From Harmothoe impar (Eukaryota; Annelida; Polychaeta; Phyllodocida; Polynoidae): a stretch of DNA of 64,000 bases. The notes beneath the pieces were generated by a model. It had not been told where the DNA came from. It saw nothing but the letters and a program-made list of their open reading frames with translations, and did no database searches. This document shows, piece by piece, positions 16,238 to 62,147 of this stretch (the stretch's first letter is position 1; each line of letters opens with the position of its first letter). The position numbers were made by a program, and so were the translations under genes. Location: contig OX381716.1 of the NCBI GenBank assembly GCA_947462335.1, positions 7,574,861 through 7,638,860 on the forward strand, read 5' to 3'.

Positions 16238-16354
16238 TGTGTAACTCACACAGCCTATGAAATTATATTATGAGTTTTTAAATAGGCAATAGTACTGGCT
16301 GATAGGTGTTGTTGGGGTGGCGCCCCCTGTACCATACAACTACGCCCTGTGTGT
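16238..16354 (+). repeat. Diverged copy of the first part of segment A
   Basis: This ~105-bp piece aligns with the first third of segment A that directly follows it. Shared parts are AAATTATAT...TGAG, ATAGGCAATRSTACTG, CTGATA and GTGGCGCCCCCT. The two therefore form a diverged tandem pair. Confidence 0.7.
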
Positions 16355-16632
16355 GACTGAAATAGCCTGTAAAATTATATCTTGAGATTTTACATAGGCA
16401 ATGCTACTGCCTGATATGTATTCTTGACGTGGCGCCCCCTATACTATACAGGGCACACTACGCGACTATGTGACAGAACCCACATAAAAGGTGTGTAAAG
16501 CAGGGTTTTGGTCGGATGAGGTCCAGTTTGGTCTAGTTACGAACCCTCAGATAGACCTAGATGTAAGAAAAATAATGTTCTCTTATACTAATACTAACCC
16601 GGATAATAACCTACACTGATGACGTCACAACG
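16355..16632 (+). repeat. Segment A, copy 1 (promoter-like, detached from its ORF)
   Basis: 278 bp nearly identical to 18884-19161 (a few substitutions seen, for example GGTCGGATG versus GGTAGGATG). It contains GTGGCGCCCCCTAT and ends in TGACGTCA (16620-16627), a consensus CRE (CREB/ATF) site. In the second copy this end leads into the ORF at 19227. Here it abuts instead the leader of the G-rich array. Confidence 0.85.
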
Positions 16633-16633
16633 A

Positions 16634-17500
16634 CTCTGTGTAGAATTTCACCACCCCCCCCCCCCCTTTTTCTGAAAAAATGAGCACTCTCCAAACGGGT
16701 CTTGCACTATGTAGGCTATGGGGGGTGGTGGGGGGTGCTGGGTGGGTGATGCTGGGTGGGTGGTGGGTGGTGCTGGGCGGGTGTTGCTGGGTGGTGGGTG
16801 GTACTGGGTGGTGGGTGGTGCTGGGTGGTGGGTGGTGGGTGGTGGTGGGTGGTGGTGGGTGGTGGTGGCTGGTGGGTGGTGGTGGGTGGTACTGGGTGGT
16901 GGGTGGTGCTTGGTGGGTGGTGGGTGGTGGGTGGTGGTGGGTGGTGGGTGGTGGTGGGTGGTGGGTGGTGGGTGGGTGGTGCTGGGTGGGTGGTGGGTGG
17001 TGCTGGTTGGTGGTGGGTGGTGGTGGGTGGTGGGTGGTGCTGGGTGGGTGGTGCTGGGTGGGTGGTGCTGGGTGGGTGGTGCTGGGTGGGTGGTGCTGGG
17101 TGGGTGGTGCTGGGTGGGTGGTGCTGGGTGGGTGGTGCTGGGTGAGTGGTGCTGGGTGGGTGGTGGGTGGTGGTGGGTGGTGGGTGGTGGTGGGTGGTGG
17201 GTGGTGGTGGGTGGTGGGTGGTCGGTGGGTGGTGGGTGGTGGGTGGTGGTTGGTGGTGGGTGGTGGGTGGTGCTGGTTGGTGGTGGGTGGTGGTGGGTGG
17301 TGGTGGGTGGTGGTGGGTGGTGGGTGGTGGTGGGTGGTGGGTGGTCGGTGGGTGGTGGGTGGTGGGTGGTGGTGGGTGGTGGGTGGTCGGTGGGTGGTGG
17401 GTGGTGGGTGGTGGTGGGTGGTGGGTGGTGGGTGGTGCTGGTTGGTGGTGGGTGGTGGTGGGTGGTGGGTGGTGCTGGGTGGGTGGTGCTGGGTGGGTGG
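16634..17500. repeat. G-rich minisatellite array 1 with 85-bp leader
   Basis: A leader (16634-16718) with a C14 run and a T5 run precedes 782 bp made almost only of GGTGGT, GGTGGGT and GCTGGGT blocks. A regular 14-bp stretch (GCTGGGTGGGTGGT) repeats about nine times around 17040-17160. The G strand has dense G-triplets, so G-quadruplex or R-loop formation is plausible (inference). Frames of up to 343 codons (Gly/Trp/Val plus, Pro/His/Thr minus) arise from the lack of stop triplets and are not genes. Confidence 0.95.
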
Positions 17501-18186
17501 TCAGATTTCAGCCAAAAATTCCAATAATAGAGAGTTGCGTTGGGCGTGTCATATGCAGGCAAGGCGCAAGTATCTGGCACACACAACCCAAGCACTGGTC
17601 GTGACACAAAGATCTACCTCCACGCCATACCACCACCACAACGGCAACTCAATCAGCGCGTGTAGTCTCTCTCTATATATACTACAGTGTCATTCAAATT
17701 CCACAGAATAGGTGTGCAAGCTGTCGGCCACAGTAGAAACCCCTTCCCTTTCTTCTGTTTCATATTCCCCCGAATTACAAACATATGTCCTTGTATTGCA
17801 GTTAATTGTTGTATGGTTTTTGAAATATATAGGACATTTTCGCAGTAAATAACACTGAAAACGAGGTGAAACGAAGGTAACTGCGTCAGAAAACGTAGTG
17901 CATACGTATGTATACCGCTATGCCATCTGGTGTAAAACGGTGGAACTGACTGGACACCTTTTCTGTGGTCTGGCTGTATGATGTAGTATATAAAGAGCGT
18001 ACACATATGGCCTTGTAGGAGGGCCCGCTGGGTGGAGAGGTGTGGTAGGCGGGTGATAGGCGGGCAAGGCGCAGGTATCTGACATATACGCAGGTACATG
18101 ACACATACACCAAGCACCGTATGTCACACAAAGATCTACCTCGATGCCTGCACCACCAGCGCGTGCCCTTTTACTCTATTTCATTG
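17501..18186. repeat. Spacer between G-rich arrays with a duplicated ~120-bp block
   Basis: 17545-17665 and 18057-18180 are diverged direct copies sharing GCAAGGCGCARGTATCTG and CACAAAGATCTACCTC. Minus-strand frames of up to 154 codons cross this spacer. They have no recognisable motif and no supporting codon pattern, so I treat them as chance frames. Confidence 0.6.
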
Positions 18187-18881
18187 CTCTGTGTAGAATT
18201 TCACCACCCCCCCCCCCCCCTTTTTCTGAAAAAATGAGCACTCTCCAAACGGGTCTTGCACTATGTAGGCTATGGGGGGTGGTGGGGGGTGCTGGGTGGG
18301 TGATGCTGGGTGGGTGGTGGGTGGTGCTGGGTGGGTGTTGCTGGGTGGTGGGTGGTGCTGGGTGGTGGGTGGTGCTGGGTGGTGGGTGGTGGGTGGTGGT
18401 GGGTGGTGGGTGGTGGTAGGTGGTGGTGGGTGGTGGTGGGTGGTGGGTGGTGCTGGGTGGTGGGTGGTACTGGGTGGTGGGTGGTGCTGGGTGGTGGGTG
18501 GTGGTGGGTGGTGGGTGGTGGGTGGTGGGTGGTGGTGGGTGGTGGGTGGTGGGTGGTGGTGGGTGGTGGGTGGTGGTGGGTGGTGGGTGGTGGTGGGTGG
18601 TGGGTGGTGGTTGGTGGTGGGTGGTGGGTGGGTGGTGCTGGGTGGGTGGTGGGTGGTGCTGGTTGGTGGTGGGTGGTGGTGGGTGGTGGGTGGTGCTGGG
18701 TGGGTGGTGCTGGGTGGGTGGTGCTGGGTGGGTGGTGCTGGGTGGGTGGTGCTGGGTGGGTGGTGCTGGGTGGGTGGTGCTGGGTGAGTGGTGCTGGGTG
18801 GGTGGTGGGTGGTGGTGGGTGGTGGGTGGTGGTGGGTGGTGGGTGGTCGGTGGGTGGTGGGTGGTGGGTGGTTGGTGGTGG
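18187..18881. repeat. G-rich minisatellite array 2 with 85-bp leader
   Basis: A second copy of the leader (18187-18271) and a 610-bp array of the same GGT/GCT units, offset 1553 bp from array 1. Repeat order is conserved at the start (GGTGGGTGATGCTGGG) and around the 14-bp stretch. Copy number differs, which fits slippage or unequal exchange after duplication. Confidence 0.95.
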
Positions 18882-18883
18882 CT

Positions 18884-19161
18884 GACTGAAATAGCCTGTA
18901 AAATTATATCTTGAGATTTTACATAGCCAATGCTACTGCCTGATATGTATTCTTGACGTGGCGCCCCCTATACTATACAGGGCACACTACGCGACTATGT
19001 GACAGAACCCACATAAAAGGTGTGTAAAGCAGGGTTTTGGTAGGATGAGGTCCAGTGTGGTCTAGTTACGAACCCTCAGATAGACCTAGATGTAAGAAAA
19101 ATAATGTTCTCTTATACTAATACTAACCCGGATAATAACCTACACTGATGACGTCACAACG
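18884..19161 (+). repeat. Segment A, copy 2 (upstream region of the 19227 ORF)
   Basis: Nearly identical to 16355-16632. It holds GGCGCCCCCTATACTATAC, whose reverse complement has the AGGGGGCGC core of CTCF-type sites (suggestive only), and ends with TGACGTCA. Its 3' end lies 66 bp from the ATG of the ORF, so it is probably promoter DNA. Confidence 0.8.
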
Positions 19162-19190
19162 TCATTGAAATTTAAAATTGTGTGACGTCA
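19149..19190 (+). promoter_or_regulatory. Paired TGACGTCA (CRE) sites upstream of the ORF
   Basis: Two perfect 8-bp CRE palindromes lie at 19149-19156 and 19183-19190, with ATTTAAAATTG between them as a weak TATA-like element. Consensus CREs bind CREB/ATF bZIP factors and often sit within about 100 bp of start sites. The second lies 37 bp before the ATG. The transcription start itself cannot be read from sequence. Confidence 0.55.
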
Positions 19191-19226
19191 GCTGATCTCA
19201 ACTGGGGAGTCAGACAACTTGTAAAA

Positions 19227-19475
19227 ATGGCGGGGATAGGATACGTTGCCGTTCCGCGAGCAGTCATAGATGAGATGGTTGAGAAGCTGTTTTCAGCAGA
19301 TGACCAGCGAGAGCAGGAGGTGGCAAAGGTGCAGGAGGAGGTGGTGGATGAGCTGATCCGTGAGCTGACGGATCAACTCATCAGAGAGGCCGTCGAGAGG
19401 ACCAAGCTCGACGTCTGTATGGAGCAAGAGATACCCGCTGAAGTGATACAGATGCTTGAGGAGTACTCGACGTGA
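19227..19475 (+). CDS. Small acidic helical protein, intronless, histone-type 3' end
   Basis: An 82-codon ORF from an ATG in good Kozak context (GTAAAAATGGCG). The frame is open upstream to 19182, but that stretch has no ATG and overlaps the CRE. Codons are GC-rich (GAG, CTG, GTG, GTC, ATC) in an AT-rich neighbourhood, which argues for real coding. Residues 1-12 are small and hydrophobic (MAGIGYVAVP). Residues 27-60 are strongly charged with regularly spaced Val, Leu and Ile (VVDELIRELTDQLIREAVER), predicting an amphipathic helix or coiled coil. Residues 68-80 form a second short acidic helix. There is no signal peptide, membrane segment or zinc motif. I do not recognise the family and it is not a core histone. 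The stop is 28 nt before a canonical histone mRNA stem-loop, which suggests a non-polyadenylated, S-phase-regulated message (inference). It could also be one exon or a decayed retrocopy. Confidence 0.6.
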   Translation: MAGIGYVAVPRAVIDEMVEKLFSADDQREQEVAKVQEEVVDELIRELTDQLIREAVERTKLDVCMEQEIPAEVIQMLEEYST

Positions 19476-19503
19476 GCTCTCCCACCTCACCCACTCTACT
19501 AAC

Positions 19504-19519
19504 GGCCCTTTTCAGGGCC
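19504..19519 (+). terminator. Histone-type mRNA 3' stem-loop
   Basis: GGCCCTTTTCAGGGCC forms the exact 16-nt structure: a 6-bp stem starting GG/CC, a TTTC loop, and the 3' arm AGGGCC. Flanks AAC before and AACC after fit SLBP-type sites of animal replication-dependent histone genes. It lies 28 nt after the TGA of the 82-codon ORF, a normal spacing. A purine-rich downstream element is weak at best (CAAAAGTTTAAG at 19533-19544). No AATAAA polyadenylation signal is seen soon after. Confidence 0.8.
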
Positions 19520-20747
19520 AACCATTTTTCCCAAAAGTTTAAGTTATCTCAATCTAACATATGCAATTTTTTATTTTATGTATTTAAAAATCCACATGAG
19601 AAAACCCCTCATAGTCTCCACACTGAAAAAAACCCTCTCGTCTTGCTACACCACCCTCCTCCACCCATATTGTCCCCCAGTCCAGACCCACCACCCTCCA
19701 CAAAAGGGTTAACCCATAACAAAATTATATCTTGAGATTTTACATAGGCAATGCTACTGGCTGATATGTATTGTTGATGTGGCGCCCCCTATACTATACA
19801 GAGCACACTACACCCACTTTGTATATAGACTATAGTACTGGCCAGAACACACACCAGGACACAAGGACAAATTAAAAGTTTAGATTATCATAAGAACATA
19901 GCCTTTATTTGTTGAAAGTAAAACATATCCAAGTACCATAATACAGTGATTGTTTATATTTTAATTAGTATTAGCAATAAAAAATAGATACATAAATATT
20001 GAGTAACATGTAATAGGTTATAGTTGACATTTCTAATTATTGGGACTGTCTCAATAGCTTGTCTATCATATAGCTCTCCCTCGTGGAGATGAAATATCAT
20101 CAATAAGGTAAAGATATTATGATAATATGACATTTAGGTGAAGGAGCCAGTGATCATTATTCAAGCCTCAAGTGTTATGAACATGTATTTGTAATAGACC
20201 TCTGTTAGCCAGACAGGTTTAAATATGTAACAATGTATACACATAAACTTATTGAATCTTACATCTTTAGGGTTTTATGAGTTCCTTATATAAGCATGGT
20301 CTACATGGCTTAGGTATGGCGTATAACTTCTCTAATGTAGTCTAGAGTTACCACATCATATCAAGGGTTTACTTTATCCTGCATGCATGGCCTAGGTGGC
20401 CCAGGTAGGGTAGACTCACAATGAGTTGGACACTGGTATTTCTAATCCCTCCTGTGTTATCAGACGTGTAGTGGTGATTGGTTGGAAAGAACGAGACTTA
20501 AACTTATCATTATTCACAAGAATATAGAAAAGAATGTTTGAATAAGCACAAATTCAATCAAGTGTCCGTTTCAAGATATATGGTCCACTCAAGTTGAATC
20601 TATACTATGCCCAGGTTCTCTCATATGTAGCCTGCAATTACCACATCATTTCGGCATATGTTGTTTAAGATATCGGTCAATATTACGCCCTAATACATAG
20701 ACGTTAACCCAAGGTCAAGGCTTTCTTAGCAAGTACTCATGTATTAG
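19520..20747. other. Non-genic interval with a third partial segment A
   Basis: 19715-19815 repeats the AAATTATATCTTGAG...GGCGCCCCCTATACTATACAG part of segment A with a few substitutions. The remainder is AT-rich with no supported gene. Confidence 0.65.
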
Positions 20748-26160: not shown

Positions 26161-28088
26161 CATGTTTAGTTCCAGAGCTATGTGCATGTTTGCATTCTAT
26201 ACTATACACATGTGTGGTGGTCCCCGCAAAAAGAATTTCTCAAATATTGTGTCTAAGTACCTCAAAATTGAACATTTCCAAAAGGCCCATGGGGGGGGGG
26301 GGGCAAAAAATTTGCGCGCGCCCCTGTTAACACCAACGAGTTCAGTTCATGTTTACTAAATAACTACTGCATATTATGCAATATCTCCCAGAAATTCTCA
26401 TTCTTTGGACATTAGTGATAGTCCTAGCAAAAGGAAATCCTCAAATATCATGTCTAGGTACCTCAAAATTTAAAAGAGCAGAATGAAGAATATTGTGAAA
26501 ATCGAGACTAAATTATGGCTCCAAATGATGCGTCTTGGCGAGAGGAGTTCAGAAATGTTCAATTTATCTCTCTATCATGTTTAGTTCCAGAGCTATGTGC
26601 ATGTTTGCATTCTATACTATACACATGTGTGGTGGTCCCCGCAAAAAGAATTTCTCAAATATTGTGTCTAAGTACCTCAAAATTGAACATTTCCAAAAGG
26701 CCCATGGGGGGGGGGGCAAAAAATTTGCGCGCGCCCCTGTTAACACCAACGAGTTCAGTTCATGTTTACTAAATAACTACTGCATATTATGCAATATCTC
26801 CCAGAAATTCTCATTCTTTGGACATTAGTGATAGTCCTAGCAAAAGGAAATTCTCAAATATCATGTCTAGGTACCTCAAAATTTAAAAGAGCAGAATGAA
26901 GAATATTGTGAAAATCGAGACTAAATTATGGCTCCAAATGATGCGTCTTGGCGAGAGGAGTTCAGAAATGTTCAATTTATCTCTCTATCATGTTTAGTTC
27001 CAGAGCTATGTGCATGTTTGCATTCTATACTATACACATGTGTGGTGGTCCCCGCAAAAAGAATTTCTCAAATATTGTGTCTAAGTACCTCAAAATTGAA
27101 CATTTCCAAAAGGCCCATGGGGGGGGGGGCAAAAAATTTGCGCGCGCCCCTGTTAACACCAACGAGTTCAGTTCATGTTTACTAAATAACTACTGCATAT
27201 TATGCAATATCTCCCAGAAATTCTCATTCTTTGGACATTAGTGATAGTCCTAGCAAAAGGAAATTCTCAAATATCATGTCTAGGTACCTCAAAATTTAAA
27301 AGAGCAGAATGAAGAATATTGTGAAAATCGAGACTAAATTATGGCTCCAAATGATGCGTCTTGGCGAGAGGAGTTCAGAAATGTTCAATTTATCTCTCTA
27401 TCATGTTTAGTTCCAGAGCTATGTGCATGTTTGCATTCTATACTATACACATCTATGGTAGTCCTCGCAAAAAGAATTTCTCAAATATTGTGTCTAAGTA
27501 CCTCAAAATTGAACATTTCCAAAGGGCCCATGGGGGGGGGGGGGAAATTTGCGCGCGCCCCAGTTAACACCAAACGAGTTCAGTGCATGTTTACTAAATA
27601 ACTACTGCATATTATGCAATATCTCCCAGAAATTCTCATTCTTTGGACATTAGTGATAGTCCTAGCAAAAGGAAATCCTCAAATATCATGTCTAGGTACC
27701 TCAAAATTTAAAAGAGCAGAATGAAGAATATTGTGAAAATCGAGACTAAATTATGGCTCCAAATGATGCGTCTTGGCGAGAGGAGTTCAGAAATGTTCAA
27801 TTTATCTCTCTATCATGTTTAGTTCCAGAGCTAGGTGCATATTAGTGACTTTTTGTCCCCCCCCCCCGGTTTGATACATGTCCGACCTAAAACCAGTACT
27901 GCCTCAGAACGGTTATTAGAGTTGCCTGTGCTTTAAAAGATGTAAATACCCGGTATTTAACACTCAGAAAGGTTAATAGAGCTGTCTGTGCTTTAATACA
28001 TGTGAATACCCGGTAGTTAAGGCCATGGTTCTTCAGAAATTAAAGTTCTTTTTCTGCCATTTCATATGTAAATTCTTATATTTTCCAG

Positions 28089-28249
28089 TGAACGTGAGCG
28101 GTACGAGCAGGAGTCGCACAAACGGGAGCCACGGGAGCGGGAGTCGCCGGAGTTGCAGGAGCGGGAGCCTTGGCCACGTGGACACAGCACTCAGAACCTT
28201 GATCAGGGGCTCTTCAACACGTCTAGGGGCTCCAACCACTCCTCCTCAG
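28089..28249 (+). CDS. Glu/Arg-rich exon, copy 1 of 4
   Basis: A 161-nt exon bounded by a pyrimidine-rich acceptor (CTTATATTTTCCAG) and donor CTCAG/GTCAGC. It reads T, then 53 codons, then G. The frame is rich in GAG and CGG codons: ERERYEQESHKREPRERESP, then LQEREPWPRGHSTQN, then a Ser/Asn-rich end. An in-frame TAA lies in the putative intron just upstream. GC content is far above the flanks. The charged E/R sequence suggests a disordered or helical segment of a nuclear-type protein, but no family is recognisable. The longer open frame in another phase (88 codons) is the shadow. Confidence 0.5.
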
Positions 28250-29273
28250 GTCAGCATTTACCCAATTTTCGACTTCAGGGGGGGTCTCTGAAATTTGGTC
28301 TTCAGAGCAAATCTTAAACTCCACAGTACTGACTGAGCGCCCAATGTGACCAATTTTCATGGGATACTTTCAGGGAGTTAGGCCTAATTCTCAGTACTGC
28401 CACTAACGCACTGCTATCTATAGACCTTGAATTTATATAAAAAAACAATTCCCAGGTCATTTACCCAATTTTTGACTTCAGGGGGGGGTCTCGGAAATGT
28501 TTCTTTAGAGCCAATTATAGTGCCAAACGAAGCGTCTTGGCGAGAGGAGTTCAGAAATGTTCAATTTATCTCTCTATCATGTTTAGTTCCAGAGCTATGG
28601 GCATGTTTGCATTCTATACTATACACATCTATGGTAGTCCTCGCAAAAAGAATTTCTCAAATATTGTGTCTAAGTACCTCAAAATTGAACATTTCCAAAG
28701 GGCCCATGGGGGGGGGGGGCGAAAAAATTTGCGCGCGCCCCAGTTAACACCAAACGAGTTCAGTGCATGTTTACTAAATAACTACTGCATATTATGCAAT
28801 ATCTCCCAGAAATTCTCATTCTTTGGACATTAGTGATAGTCCTAGCAAAAGGAAATCCTCAAATATCATGTCTAGGTACCTCAAAATTTAAAAGAGCAGA
28901 ATGAAGAATATTGTGAAAATCGAGACTAAATTATGGCTCCAAATGATGCGTCTTGGCGAGAGGAGTTCAGAAATGTTCAATTTATCTCTCTATCATGTTT
29001 AGTTCCAGAGCTAGGTGCATATTAGTGACTTTTTGTCCCCCCCCCCCCCCCCGGTTTGATACATGTCCGACCTTAAACCAGTACTGCCTCAGAAAGGTTA
29101 TTAGAGTTGCCTGTGCTTTAAAAGATGTAAATACCCGGTATTTAACACTCAGAAAGGTTAATAGAGCTGTCTGTGCTTTAATACATGTGAATACCCGGTA
29201 GTTAAGGCCATGGTTCTTCAGAAATTAAAGTTCTTTTTCTGCCATTTCATATGTAAATTCTTATATTTTCCAG

Positions 29274-29434
29274 TGAACGTGAGCGGTACGAGCAGGAGTC
29301 GCACAAACGGGAGCCACGGGAGCGGGAGTCGCCGGAGTTGCAGGAGCGGGAGCCTTGGCCACGTGGACACAGCACTCAGAACCTTGATCAGGGGCTCTTC
29401 AACACGTCTAGGGGCTCCAACCACTCCTCCTCAG
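29274..29434 (+). CDS. Glu/Arg-rich exon, copy 2 of 4
   Basis: Identical by eye to copy 1, including acceptor and donor, at an offset of 1185 bp. If transcripts cross the array, exon phases (2 nt needed before, 1 nt left after) join one copy to the next in frame, because the trailing G and leading T leave 2 of 3 codon bases. The join therefore lacks one base and would shift frame, which argues against simple multi-copy inclusion. Confidence 0.45.
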
Positions 29435-30860
29435 GTCAGCATTTACCCAATTTTCGACTTCAGGGGGGGTCTCTGAAATTTGGTCTTCAGAGCAAATCTT
29501 AAACTCCACAGTACTGACTGAGCGCCCAATGTGACCAATTTTCATGGGATACTTTCAGGGAGTTAGGCCTAATTCTCAGTACTGCCACTAACGCACTGCT
29601 ATCTATAGACCTTGAATTTATATAAAAAAACAATTCCCAGGTCATTTACCCAATTTTTGACTTCAGGGGGGGGTCTCGGAAATGTTTCTTTAGAGCCAAT
29701 TATAGTGCCAAACGAAGCGTCTTGGCGAGAGGAGTTCAGAAATGTTCAATTTATCTCTCTATCATGTTTAGTTCCAGAGCTATGTGCATGTTTGCATTCT
29801 ATACTATACACATGTGTGGTGGTCCCCGCAAAAAGAATTTCTCAAATATTGTGTCTAAGTACCTCAAAATTGAACATTTCCAAAAGGCCCATGGGGGGGG
29901 GGGGCAAAAAATTTGCGCGCGCCCCTGTTAACACCAACGAGTTCAGTTCATGTTTACTAAATAACTACTGCATATTATGCAATATCTCCCAGAAATTCTC
30001 ATTCTTTGGACATTAGTGATAGTCCTAGCAAAAGGAAATTCTCAAATATCATGTCTAGGTACCTCAAAATTTAAAAGAGCAGAATGAAGAATATTGTGAA
30101 AATCGAGACTAAATTATGGCTCCAAATGATGCGTCTTGGCGAGAGGAGTTCAGAAATGTTCAATTTATCTCTCTATCATGTTTAGTTCCAGAGCTATGTG
30201 CATGTTTGCATTCTATACTATACACATCTATGGTAGTCCTCGCAAAAAGAATTTCTCAAATATTGTGTCTAAGTACCTCAAAATTGAACATTTCCAAAGG
30301 GCCCATGGGGGGGGGGGAAATTTGTGCGCGCCCCAGTTAACACCAAACGAGTTCAGTGCATGTTTACTAAATAACTACTGCATATTATGCAATATCTCCC
30401 AGAAATTCTCATTCTTTGGACATTAGTGATAGTCCTAGCAAAAGGAAATCCTCAAATATCATGTCTAGGTACCTCAAAATTTAAAAGAGCAGAATGAAGA
30501 ATATTGTGAAAATCGAGACTAAATTATGGCTCCAAATGATGCGTCTTGGCGAGAGGAGTTCAGAAATGTTCAATTTATCTCTCTATCATGTTTAGTTCCA
30601 GAGCTAGGTGCATATTAGTGACTTTTTGTCCCCCCCCCCGGTTTGATACATGTCCGACCTTAAACCAGTACTGCCTCAGAACGGTTATTAGAGTTGCCTG
30701 TGCTTTAAAAGATGTAAATACCCGGTATTTAACACTCAGAAAGGTTAATAGAGCTGTCTGTGCTTTAATACATGTGAATACCCGGTAGTTAAGGCCATGG
30801 TTCTTCAGAAATTAAAGTTCTTTTTCTGCCATTTCATATGTAAATTCTTATATTTTCCAG

Positions 30861-31021
30861 TGAACGTGAGCGGTACGAGCAGGAGTCGCACAAACGGGAG
30901 CCACGGGAGCGGGAGTCGCCGGAGTTGCAGGAGCGGGAGCCTTGGCCACGTGGACACAGCACTCAGAACCTTGATCAGGGGCTCTTCAACACGTCTAGGG
31001 GCTCCAACCACTCCTCCTCAG
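30861..31021 (+). CDS. Glu/Arg-rich exon, copy 3 of 4
   Basis: Identical by eye to copies 1 and 2 with intact acceptor and donor. It is separated from copy 2 by 1587 bp because one extra ~400-bp monomer is present. Confidence 0.45.
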
Positions 31022-32051
31022 GTCAGCATTTACCCAATTTTCGACTTCAGGGGGGGTCTCTGAAATTTGGTCTTCAGAGCAAATCTTAAACTCCACAGTA
31101 CTGACTGAGCGCCCAATGTGACCAATTTTCATGGGATACTTTCAGGGAGTTAGGCCTAATTCTCAGTACTGCCACTAACGCACTGCTATCTATAGACCTT
31201 GAATTTATATAAAAAAACAATTCCCAGGTCATTTACCCAATTTTTGACTTCAGGGGGGGGTCTCGGAAATGTTTCTTTAGAGCCAATTATAGTGCCAAAC
31301 GAAGCGTCTTGGCGAGAGGAGTTCAGAAATGTTCAATTTATCTCTCTATCATGTTTAGTTCCAGAGCTATGGGCATGTTTGCATTCTATACTATACACAT
31401 CTATGGTAGTCCTCGCAAAAAGAATTTCTCAAATATTGTGTCTAAGTACCTCAAAATTGAACATTTCCAAAGGGCCCATGGGGGGGGGGGGGGGGCGAAA
31501 AAATTTGCGCGCGCCCCAGTTAACACCAAACGAGTTCAGTGCATGTTTACTAAATAACTACTGCATATTATGCAATATCTCCCAGAAATTCTCATTCTTT
31601 GGACATTAGTGATAGTCCTAGCAAAAGGAAATCCTCAAATATCATGTCTAGGTACCTCAAAATTTAAAAGAGCAGAATGAAGAATATTGTGAAAATCGAG
31701 ACTAAATTATGGCTCCAAATGATGCGTCTTGGCGAGAGGAGTTCAGAAATGTTCAATTTATCTCTCTATCATGTTTAGTTCCAGAGCTAGGTGCATATTA
31801 GTGACTTTTTGTCCCCCCCCCCCCCCGGTTTGATACATGTCCGACCTTAAACTCCACAGTACTGCCTCAGAAAGGTTATTAGAGTTGCCTGTGCTTTAAA
31901 AGATGTAAATACCCGGTATTTAACACTCAGAAAGGTTAATAGAGCTGTCTGTGCTTTAATACATGTAAATACCCGGTAGTTAAGGCCATGGTTCTTCAGA
32001 AATTAAAGTTCTTTTTCTGCCATTTTATATGTAAATTCTTATATTTTCCAG

Positions 32052-54200: not shown

Positions 54201-56797
54201 ATGACAAATATGGGCTACATCAACAATTGTGAAACTTGTGACCCTAGCTGTAAATTTATAGAAATCCAATGTATTAGGGTTGAAAAACCAAACAATAAGC
54301 GGCTAGTATTGGTCAATGTTTACAGACCCCCTAAAAGTTGTAAGGTAGAATTTATACGTCTACTGAAAGAGACGCTTGGAGCCATACCTGAGAGAAATAA
54401 GGTAGAAATTATCTTGACGGGTGATATTAACATAAACCTAGCCCTGGTTAGAGATGAACGGGTTAAAGATTTCAAGAAATTGATGAAGGATTTTGGTCTT
54501 AGAATTTTAATTAAAGAATTTACTCGCTGTGTTGGCAAAGCCAAATCCATAATAGATGTCATTTGTACAAACGCCAAGTATGTAAACAAGTCTGGTTTGT
54601 TAAATCTGAATATAACTGATCATTATGCAATATACATGGTAAGGAAAAAGAATGTTGAGAAGAAACCCAAGATTAAACATGTCGGTCACTCGTATAAGAA
54701 ATATGATCAAGCTCGTCTTGCTGGTGACTTAAATTTACATGATTGGACAACTTTTGATAACTCGAGGGATCCCTCATTGAAATGGGATATTTTACATAAT
54801 GTTATTGAGACCTCCCTTGACAAGATGTGCCCAATTAAGACATTTAATATCCCAGAAGATAGAGAAGAGTGGGTCACCGATCACATGATTAATGTATTGC
54901 GCGACAAAAATAATCTTCTAGCCAAAGCTAGACGTACTGGCCTGGATGTGGATAGAGCTAGGGCAGATAAAGCCAAGCGCCAGGGTAACAAATACGCAAG
55001 GTCTGTAAAAAGGAAATGTATTAGAGATGAATTAAAAGCCAGTGAGGGTAATGCTACTGAATTCTGGCGGAAAATCCAAAAACTAATTCCGGATTCACCC
55101 AAGCACTCGATAGTGGAACTTGTGGACACTGAAAGTAACATCCCTGTTGAGGAGTCAAATGTGGCCACACATATTAATACATTCTTTACAAATATAGGGC
55201 CCAATCTCTCAAGAGATATGCATGATGTATGGAAGCCGTATGATGAGAGAATGCATGAAACTCTGCTCGATTTTGGATGCACTGTTAATGAAGTTAGGAC
55301 TGTGATTAAGCAAATCAATACTAGGAAATCATCAGCAATTGATAACATGTCAAATATGGTTATAAAAGATGCCTTCACACATATGGTGGATAAGGTCACA
55401 GATATGTTTAAATGTTCCTTTGAAACACTGTGCCAAATAAATGGAAAACTGCTACCATAGTACCTGTGTATAAATCTGGTAACCCTAAACATGTTGGAAA
55501 TTATAGACCCATAGCGTTGACACCAACCCCCTGTAAGCTCATAGAAAAACTTGTACATAAACACATTATGAATTTCCTCACTAGATTCAATATATTGTCT
55601 CCTCATCAAGGTGGATTCAGAGCAGGGAAGTCAACAATAGCAACCTTAGCTGATTTCACAGACTGTATATCCCGTGACCTGAACGTAGCCAAGCCCACTG
55701 TGGCAGTGTTTATAGATTTAAGTAAGGCTTTTGACACCGTGGACCACTCCATTCTATCCGACAAGCTAGAAAATTATGGCATAAGAAATAATAATTTAAA
55801 ATGGTTAAATAGCTATTTAGGCCAAAGGATACAAAAAACCAAGGTAAACAATACTCTGTCCGATCCCCTTGGAGTGGTCTGCGGTGTCCCACAGGGCTCA
55901 ATATTAGGACCATTGCTGTTCTTACTTTATGTGAACGACCTGCCAAAATGTGTAAAAAATTCGAGTATAAAACTCTATGCCGATGATACTGTCATTTTTG
56001 ACTCTGATGTTAATATAGAAAATATTCATAAGAAATTACAATCCAGTCTTGACCTGTTTGGTTTATGGTGCCTCCAAAATAAGTTAACTGTAAATACAGG
56101 GAAAACAAAGGTAATGGCCTTTACAGCTTCAAAAAGGAAGTTAAATGCTATGGACATAAATCTGTTTTTACATGATACTAAGCTCATGGTGGTCCAGTCA
56201 TACAAATATCTCGGTGTACTGTTAGATTCTCATTTGAAATATGATTTACATGTCAAACAACAGCTCAAATCCATAAACCACAAGACATTTATAGTGGCAA
56301 ATCTTAGAACATCAATGACAAAAGGTATAGCATTCAAAATTTACAAATCCAAAATCTTGCCATACTTTGATTATGGAGATCAACTTTTTTGCTCCGCGGC
56401 CAAATATATTCTTGATGACCTGCAGTTTGCACAAAATAGGTGCCTTAAGATATGTTTAAAGGTTGACCACCTTACAGATACCAATGTGGTACATGCAAAT
56501 TCCAAATTCCCATTGTTAAGCCATAGAAGAAAAGTACATCTGGAATATTTCATGTATAAGAGAGCACAAAACCCTGAATATACGGTAAATAGAAATCTCC
56601 CCACACGCGCACATGTAGGACCTATCCTTTTTAGACATACACCACATACTGATGTTTATTACAGGTCAGTTGAACATTATGGAACCATGTTGTGGAATGC
56701 ACTCCCGGCACCTGTACGCCTCCTACCAACCCACACTAGTTTTAAAAATGATAGAAAACTATGGTTGGAGGGAGAGGTACCTATAATTGTTAATTAA
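54201..56797 (+). pseudogene. LINE endonuclease-reverse transcriptase, one frameshift
   Basis: Part one (54201-55460, 419 codons) has endonuclease/exonuclease/phosphatase-fold motifs VNVYRPP (residues 38-44), TGDININ (73-79) and TDH (139-141), then an RT-proximal linker. The N-terminal catalytic Asn and Glu blocks are missing. Near 55427 the frame shifts by one base. Part two (55430-56797) carries the RT: NYRPIAL, GGFRAGKST, FIDLSKAFDTVDH (94-106), GVPQGSILGP (152-161) and the catalytic YADD (183-186), then the thumb and a C-terminal region. The shift falls between conserved blocks, so it looks like a single indel. The minus-strand 242-codon frame is a shadow. Confidence 0.9.
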
Positions 56798-60797: not shown

Positions 60798-62147
60798 ATG
60801 GGCAGGACCAAGGTCGTAGCGAAGAAGAGTCAGGTCGGCGCATAGAAGTCCACAACGCCATAGGGGCTTCTAAAGCCCGTCGACGTGCAAGCGAACTACA
60901 GGCTCAGAGCTGGTAAAAATGTCGACTTGACCGTGGCCGCTCCAGAGACGGCCGCCCCAAAGCCCGTCAAGAAGGCAGCTATGAAGAAGGCTTCCAAGAT
61001 GGCGGCTCCCGCCAAGGAGGTCATCGTCGTCTAGGACGCCACCGCCCGAGGGGACAACTCCAACACCAGCATGCGGGTCTCCATACTGGAGGGGGATATG
61101 ATGACTATCAAAAAGGACGTCAGCTCCCTGCACCACAAGATGGACCTTCTCATCGACCAAGCTCTGGATAAGTCGAGCTCAAAGTCGCACAGCACTCCCC
61201 GCTAGGACTCCAGCGGCGCAAGGTCCCGGGTCGCCACCCACGGTGCCTCCATGTTCAACCCGGGCACTCAGGTTGGCGGCCTGGCACCCACCCTCCTGCA
61301 GCACGCAGGTGAACAACACCGGTTCCCATTGGGCGCCGACCTCCTCAGGGCCCCGGGAGCCGGGGACTTTGTCACAAGGGAGCTCATGAAGCAGGCGCAT
61401 CAGCCCCAGGTCACCGATGGTAAGGCACTCTTACTCAACGACCCATTTCAAAAACAATTACTTGCCAAACCTTACATGTACCTTGACCGCCCAGGTTGTA
61501 CCACCCTGAAACAAAAACTTGATGCTCGACATACCATGACGTCACTCGAGTATATCTAGGCCTTGTCCACCCTCATAAGGCGTGAGGATGCCTACCCCCT
61601 TCAGAACTTCCCATTCATGATGGAACATCTCACAGACGTCACGAAAGATGCTAGACAAAGGCACTGGGCCGGGGTACTCACCTGGTTGCAGTTTGTCCTC
61701 GACAGCATCGAGCGTGACGACTTTGCATGGAAGGACTGGCATAAAGTTCAACAAGCCAGGAACATGTATTCCTTTGCACCCCCTCCCACAGCGCACACAC
61801 ACAAGTCCAGCGGCAAGACCACCCGACAACAACAACAACACGTGTCACACGCGCCGCTGGCTAATGTCAACAGCGCGACTGATCTCTGCACTGCATTCAA
61901 ATCAGCGCAAGGATGTTAACAAAGGTCACATCATGAAGGCGCACATCACTACTGTTCATACTGTTACTCCTCTGTCTCGAAGCTGTGCACCTACTCCCAC
62001 TCCAGGTGTGATAGGAAATACCGGGAGCTGAACGGTGGCAGGTCGCAGTTCACGTCAGCTGGTTACAACAATAACAATCAGGGCAGTTGGCGGTCGGGAT
62101 CCAACGACGCACAAAACACGGCCGCACCGTCAAAAAACGCCCAGTAG
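60798..62147 (+). pseudogene. Gag-like ORF1 of the DIRS/Ngaro element, multiple stops
   Basis: One continuous frame from ATG 60798 (MGRTKVVAKK) to TAG 62145. It is interrupted by TAG at 60843, 60861, 61032, 61203 and 61557 and TAA at 61917. The N-terminal part is Ala/Lys-rich (KPVKKAAMKKASK) and is followed by a helical stretch (residues about 90-125). The middle (61251-61900) is the conserved-looking gag core with LNDPFQKQLLAKP and WLQFVLDSIERDDF. After 61919 a cluster HHYCSYC, C and HSRC resembles a zinc-binding knuckle, which shows the TAA is premature. The end overlaps the pol frame, as is common in this group. Confidence 0.75.

What the first reader, a model, noticed from the sequence alone, without database searches (positions are those of the whole stretch)
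19149..19519. Non-histone 82-codon gene with a canonical histone mRNA 3' stem-loop
Seen: a GC-rich intronless ORF (19227-19475), stop, 28 nt, then GGCCCTTTTCAGGGCC with AAC and AACC flanks, and two TGACGTCA sites upstream. Known: this stem-loop directs SLBP/U7-dependent, non-polyadenylated 3' ends and is almost confined to replication-dependent histone genes. Inferred: a small acidic helical protein made in S phase or from maternal histone-like mRNA. I do not recognise the protein, so this may be an undescribed member of the stem-loop mRNA class.
Basis: partly seen in the sequence, partly recalled or inferred. Interest (0 to 1): 0.82.

Follow-up and report, generated by a model that had tools for sequence, protein, structure and literature searches.

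The report
Non-histone gene with histone-style mRNA end
A short open reading frame for an acidic protein with no detectable similarity to histones is followed, 28 bases after its stop codon, by the hairpin that normally ends histone messages, so its messenger would likely be made and destroyed in step with DNA replication, something otherwise reported almost only for histone genes.

Summary
An 82-codon frame (19227-19475) ends 28 nt before a perfect histone 3' hairpin (19504-19519). Rfam Histone3 gives 37.5 bits (gathering 34, E 2.3e-7). A 21-nt hairpin-plus-flank pattern occurs 3 times in 257 Gb of prokaryotic DNA, and those chance copies score 23.1-30.5 bits. The frame has strong codon-position bias (0 of 5000 shuffles reach it), two TGACGTCA sites upstream and no AATAAA until 501 nt after the stop. 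The protein (9.4 kDa, pI 4.1) matched no family above a curated cut-off and no solved structure convincingly; the single-sequence model is one long helix plus a short one.

Best reading: a compact non-histone gene whose mRNA is likely ended by SLBP/U7 cleavage, with likely S-phase or maternal expression. Weak points: no transcript data, no relative found (the genome search did not complete), a poor U7-binding element. A relic histone 3' end beside a small ORF, or one exon of a spliced gene, remain possible. Papers seen treat histone mRNAs as the only metazoan mRNAs of this kind; one CLIP paper names one non-histone SLBP-bound RNA.

The parts
19227..19475 (+). ORF, 82 codons plus TGA; acidic protein, 9.4 kDa, pI 4.1, predicted long helix 11-66 and helix 71-81
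19504..19519 (+). histone-type 3' stem-loop, 6-bp stem and 4-nt loop
   Evidence: Rfam RF00032 37.5 bits over 19499-19544; fold
19520..19524 (+). AACCA; CA ends 5 nt after the stem, the predicted cleavage site (inferred from the rule in PMC6303110)
19532..19543 (+). weak purine-rich stretch, candidate U7-binding element (uncertain)
   Evidence: inside the Rfam match; purine count at most 7 of 10
19149..19156 (.). TGACGTCA, CRE-like palindrome
19183..19190 (.). TGACGTCA, CRE-like palindrome
19160..19164 (.). CGTCA half-site
19170..19176 (+). ATTTAAA, doubtful TATA-like site
   Evidence: pattern only, promoter role inferred
19347..19382 (+). imperfect palindrome inside the ORF (hairpin of -20.9 kcal/mol)

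Best explanation
An uninterrupted 82-codon reading frame for an acidic protein without detectable histone similarity carries a canonical histone stem-loop 28 nt after its stop, so its mRNA is likely cut by the SLBP/U7 machinery after AACCA (19524) instead of being polyadenylated. As a consequence (inferred) the mRNA would be stable and translated while SLBP is present, in S phase or from a maternal store, and degraded when replication stops. The protein is predicted to be a long amphipathic helix plus a short C-terminal one. I think it most likely serves as a small partner protein needed in proportion to DNA replication or stored in eggs, for example one binding a basic chromatin protein; this last step is a guess from charge and presumed timing. 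The 3' end was probably acquired when a histone gene's 3' segment came to lie next to this ORF (inferred). Shown: ORF, codon-position bias, hairpin, flanks, distances, no AATAAA for 501 nt. Inferred: transcription, processing, timing, function.
For: Rfam Histone3 above its gathering score; pattern-matched chance loci score lower (3 of 5 with a match, 23.1-30.5 bits). Hairpin 28 nt after the stop, CA 5 nt after the stem. Coding-like bias: asymmetry 48.5 against 6.1 (sd 3.4), 0 of 5000 shuffles; GC by codon position 70/28/66; GC3 67% against 36% and 35% in the two LINE frames. Two TGACGTCA sites 36-70 nt before the ATG. First AATAAA 501 nt after the stop. No histone similarity.
Against: No transcript evidence. 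No clear HDE: no AAAGAG core, best stretch 7 purines of 10. No relative found, so no conservation test; the genome search did not complete. ATTAAA and AGTAAA, possible variant poly(A) signals, lie 396 and 442 nt after the stop. The asymmetry measure is also high in tandem-repeat frames at 4.1-4.6 kb and in overlapping frames near 61 kb, so it is not specific to genes. The stop overlaps a GTGAGC splice-donor-like sequence.
Confidence: 0.55

Rival explanations
1. The hairpin is a relic or captured histone 3' end lying beside an unrelated, young or non-expressed ORF, with no functional coupling.
For: The locus is repeat-rich and recently rearranged: 18878-19161 is duplicated at 16349-16632 with 98% identity. 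No relative of the protein was found.
Against: The hairpin is intact with good flanks (37.5 bits), sits 28 nt after the stop, and the ORF is coding-like. tblastn with four recalled core histones finds no histone remnant in the window at E up to 1.
Confidence: 0.22
2. The ORF is the first exon of a longer spliced, polyadenylated gene and the hairpin lies in an intron.
For: GTGAGC, a donor-like sequence, overlaps the stop codon at 19472-19477.
Against: The frame is complete with start and stop, and the hairpin lies at a histone-like distance after the stop. No longer gene model was tested.
Confidence: 0.1
3. It is a strongly diverged histone-fold protein (about CENP-X size) that kept the histone 3' end.
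For: Length and helix pattern resemble CENP-X by eye (recalled); H3 alignment nominal p 0.03 among six proteins tried.
Against: The other five give p 0.12-0.78, no Pfam histone or CENP-X match, model is one long helix, no Foldseek match, acidic.
Confidence: 0.07
4. The transcript is a structured non-coding RNA that uses the histone 3' end.
For: 19200-19524 folds better than all 100 shuffles, z -3.3; internal imperfect palindrome.
Against: Three-base bias of the ORF; apart from the hairpin no Rfam family matches there at E up to 1.
Confidence: 0.05

Closest known systems
Metazoan replication-dependent histone genes (SLBP/U7-processed mRNAs; Rfam RF00032)
   Same: Canonical stem-loop shortly after the stop, CA 5 nt after the stem, short single-exon-like frame, no nearby AATAAA
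   Different: Protein is acidic and without histone similarity; no core histone found in the window; HDE weak
Solitary replication-dependent histone variants, e.g. Hydractinia H3.3.2 or H2B.3/4 (PMC5011920, passages)
   Same: Single-locus gene outside the canonical cluster carrying the stem-loop
   Different: Those encode histones
Non-histone RNA with histone stem-loop-like structures in SLBP CLIP, printed as PPP1R5B (PMC6451120, passages)
   Same: A non-histone RNA proposed to bind SLBP
   Different: There the authors say it merits further investigation; here a full Rfam-grade hairpin sits right after a short frame, but without binding data

Membership tests
Histone-type stem-loop mRNA genes | Conserved 3' stem-loop with flanks | tested here: met
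   37.5 bits against gathering 34
Histone-type stem-loop mRNA genes | CA cleavage dinucleotide about 5 nt after the stem | tested here: met
   AACCA at 19520-19524; rule from PMC6303110 passages. Sequence only, cleavage not shown
Histone-type stem-loop mRNA genes | Histone downstream element pairing with U7 snRNA | tested here: inconclusive
   No AAAGAG core; weak purine-rich stretch; host U7 unknown
Histone-type stem-loop mRNA genes | No nearby poly(A) signal | tested here: met
   First AATAAA 501 nt after the stop, ATTAAA 396 nt
Histone-type stem-loop mRNA genes | Intronless, non-polyadenylated, S-phase mRNA bound by SLBP | not testable with these tools
   Only the ORF is seen to be uninterrupted; no RNA data
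Replication-dependent histone genes | Encodes a histone | tested here: not met
   No histone match in Pfam or PDB; pairwise tests
Histone-fold proteins (CENP-X type) | Sequence or fold similarity to the histone fold | tested here: not met
   a single-sequence model, so weak

The most novel reading that the evidence does not exclude
A genuine non-histone protein gene of an animal uses the full histone 3'-end pathway: a small acidic helical protein made only when SLBP is active, perhaps a dedicated partner of newly made or egg-stored histones. That would break the rule that histone mRNAs are the only metazoan mRNAs ending in this stem-loop.
Probability: 0.4. Interest if true: 0.85.

Novelty: new variant of a known kind. 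Interest (0 to 1): 0.62.

Why it matters
Papers seen here treat replication-dependent histone mRNAs as the only metazoan mRNAs that end in the stem-loop instead of a poly(A) tail (PMC6303110 abstract; PMC12775136 abstract in a search listing). A second kind of cargo would show that the SLBP/U7 pathway is a usable S-phase or maternal expression module rather than a histone-only one, and would point to a protein needed in step with chromatin assembly.

Tried and rejected
Relatives: Pfam (also 10 frames of the window, one of them the 97-aa extended ORF), NCBIfam, PHROGs, solved structures, protein collection, phages, viral contigs: nothing above a curated cut-off or at a convincing E-value. Weak names listed there (enoyl-CoA hydratase, DUF5388, LMBR1 at E 0.0039 for the extended frame, RnpM, RhsFi and others) I put down to chance for an E/V/L-rich helix. 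Histone-fold reading: pairwise shuffles, model, fold search, not supported. An ENY2-binding helix as in GANP/Sac3 (recalled resemblance) had no Pfam or PDB match and is not claimed. Length of the ORF alone was rejected as evidence. The hairpin pattern in viral contigs hit only one phage stretch, within a phage frame read on the other strand (48, 51-54); the prokaryotic scan hit 3 loci, of which I read the surroundings of 1, L004. TGACGTCA as a known histone-promoter motif: one search and one paper searched for such terms without an occurrence, so no claim is made. Literature on non-histone stem-loop mRNAs: (26 was too broad); mostly listings seen, passages of nine papers (37-39, 42-44, 59-61; 59 had no occurrence).

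Full report
What is there. The window looks like animal DNA: it holds a LINE with endonuclease (PF14529) and reverse-transcriptase (PF00078) frames, and the latter has 6640 relatives at E up to 1e-20 among 7994 scored candidates, best 63% identity. That the host is a metazoan, and so has SLBP and U7, is my inference; the species is unknown. At 19227-19475 lies an 82-codon frame and, 28 nt after its TGA, GGCCCTTTTCAGGGCC (19504-19519) flanked by CTAAC and AACCA.

Is the hairpin real? Rfam's Histone3 model matches over its full length with 37.5 bits, gathering score 34, E 2.3e-7. A strict hairpin pattern occurs once in the window and averages 0.035 per dinucleotide-shuffled window, pairing not demanded. 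As an empirical background I scanned the 21-nt pattern AMGGCYCTTTTCAGRGCCAMC through collections whose organisms should have no SLBP: 2 loci among the viral contigs, both the same phage stretch, and 3 in 257 Gb of prokaryotic genomes. Scored by Rfam, the three prokaryotic copies reach 30.5, 25.6 and 23.1 bits and the phage ones give no match at E up to 0.1. The window site scores above all five and is the only one above the curated cut-off. These backgrounds have other base compositions than an animal genome, so they are a guide, not a rate for this host.

Is the ORF real? Its GC is 54.6% against 41.7% for the window, 70/28/66% by codon position. Positional base asymmetry is 48.5 against 6.1 (sd 3.4) in shuffles, 0 of 5000 reaching it. 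Among 92 stop-free frames of 82 or more codons its frame ranks third (53.4 for its best stretch), behind two overlapping frames near 61 kb; tandem-repeat frames at 4.1-4.6 kb come close (50.4, 50.4, 49.7), so the measure is not specific to genes. GC3 is 67%, against 36% and 35% in the two LINE frames. The start context AAAAATGG is strong (recalled rule). Length alone is not evidence: by my arithmetic a frame of this length is not rare at this GC.

What does it encode? A 9.4 kDa protein, pI 4.1, 21 acidic and 8 basic residues. No family above a cut-off in Pfam or NCBIfam and no strong PHROG match, no convincing solved-structure match (best E 0.054), no relative in the protein collection (14 candidates, none with E up to 1), in phages or viral contigs. 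AlphaFold2 on the single sequence gives helix 11-66 and helix 71-81, pLDDT 86, pTM 0.42, with no Foldseek match. The hydrophobic moment of residues 11-66 is reached by 5 of 2000 shuffles, but its peak is at 84 degrees, off the usual 100. A histone-fold reading of CENP-X size occurred to me by eye; pairwise shuffles do not support it (H3 nominal p 0.03 among six proteins tried, the other five 0.12-0.78).

Surroundings. TGACGTCA occurs at 19149 and 19183, with a CGTCA half-site at 19160; none of 200 shuffled windows held such a close pair. Part of this upstream region (18878-19161, with the first site but not the ORF) is duplicated at 16349-16632 at 98% identity. tblastn with four recalled core histones finds nothing in the window at E up to 1. 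After the stop, AATAAA first comes at 501 nt, ATTAAA at 396, AGTAAA at 442. Downstream of the hairpin the best stretch has 7 purines of 10; it lacks the AAAGAG core of the mouse element, though AU-rich elements occur in Drosophila (PMC7026596, passages).

How it would work. By the established pathway (SLBP on the hairpin, U7 snRNP on the downstream element, cleavage after CA 5 nt past the stem; PMC6303110 and PMC7026596, passages) the pre-mRNA would be cut after 19524. The mRNA would then be translated and degraded with the histone mRNAs, or stored in eggs; maternal storage of stem-loop mRNAs can be SLBP-independent or involve poly(A) tails (PMC12803260, passages). Transcription, processing and timing are inferred. 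That the acidic helix binds a basic or helical partner is the least secure step.

Rivals. A relic histone 3' end by a small ORF; first exon of a spliced gene (GTGAGC overlaps the stop); a diverged histone-fold protein; a structured RNA (fold z -3.3, and an imperfect palindrome of 36 nt inside the ORF). None is excluded. The intact hairpin at the right distance after a coding-like frame favours the main reading.

Prior knowledge. [quoted passage not shown] PMC12775136's abstract, seen in a search listing, calls metazoan histone mRNAs a unique class. Against strict exclusivity, PMC6451120 reports one non-histone RNA, printed as PPP1R5B, with histone stem-loop-like structures in SLBP CLIP data (passages). 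The listings of my searches showed no gene like this one; they cover open-licence papers only.

Limits. The genome search did not complete in 17 tries, so neither copy number nor the host's histone genes could be seen. How far the collections that did answer cover this animal's relatives is unknown, so the lack of relatives is weak evidence of absence.

Noticed in passing
16349-16632 and 18878-19161: A 284-nt direct duplication at 98% identity that holds the region upstream of the ORF, with the first TGACGTCA but not the ORF; both flank GGT-rich minisatellites.
   Followed up: partly
16259, 16371, 18900, 19721: A 91-nt repeat in four copies (73-99% to the reference); two copies flank the ORF locus.
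   Followed up: partly
16690-17530 and 18260-18880: Two long GGTGGGTGG-type minisatellite arrays.
   Followed up: no
54201-56797: LINE with endonuclease and reverse-transcriptase domains in two overlapping frames.
   Followed up: partly
26515-31609: Repeated frames beginning MAPNDASW or MARGVQKC, the first three 413 nt apart.
   Followed up: no
19347-19382: Imperfect palindrome inside the ORF, folding at -20.9 kcal/mol.
   Followed up: partly
60870-61178: Overlapping open frames on both strands with higher codon-position asymmetry than the ORF studied.
   Followed up: no
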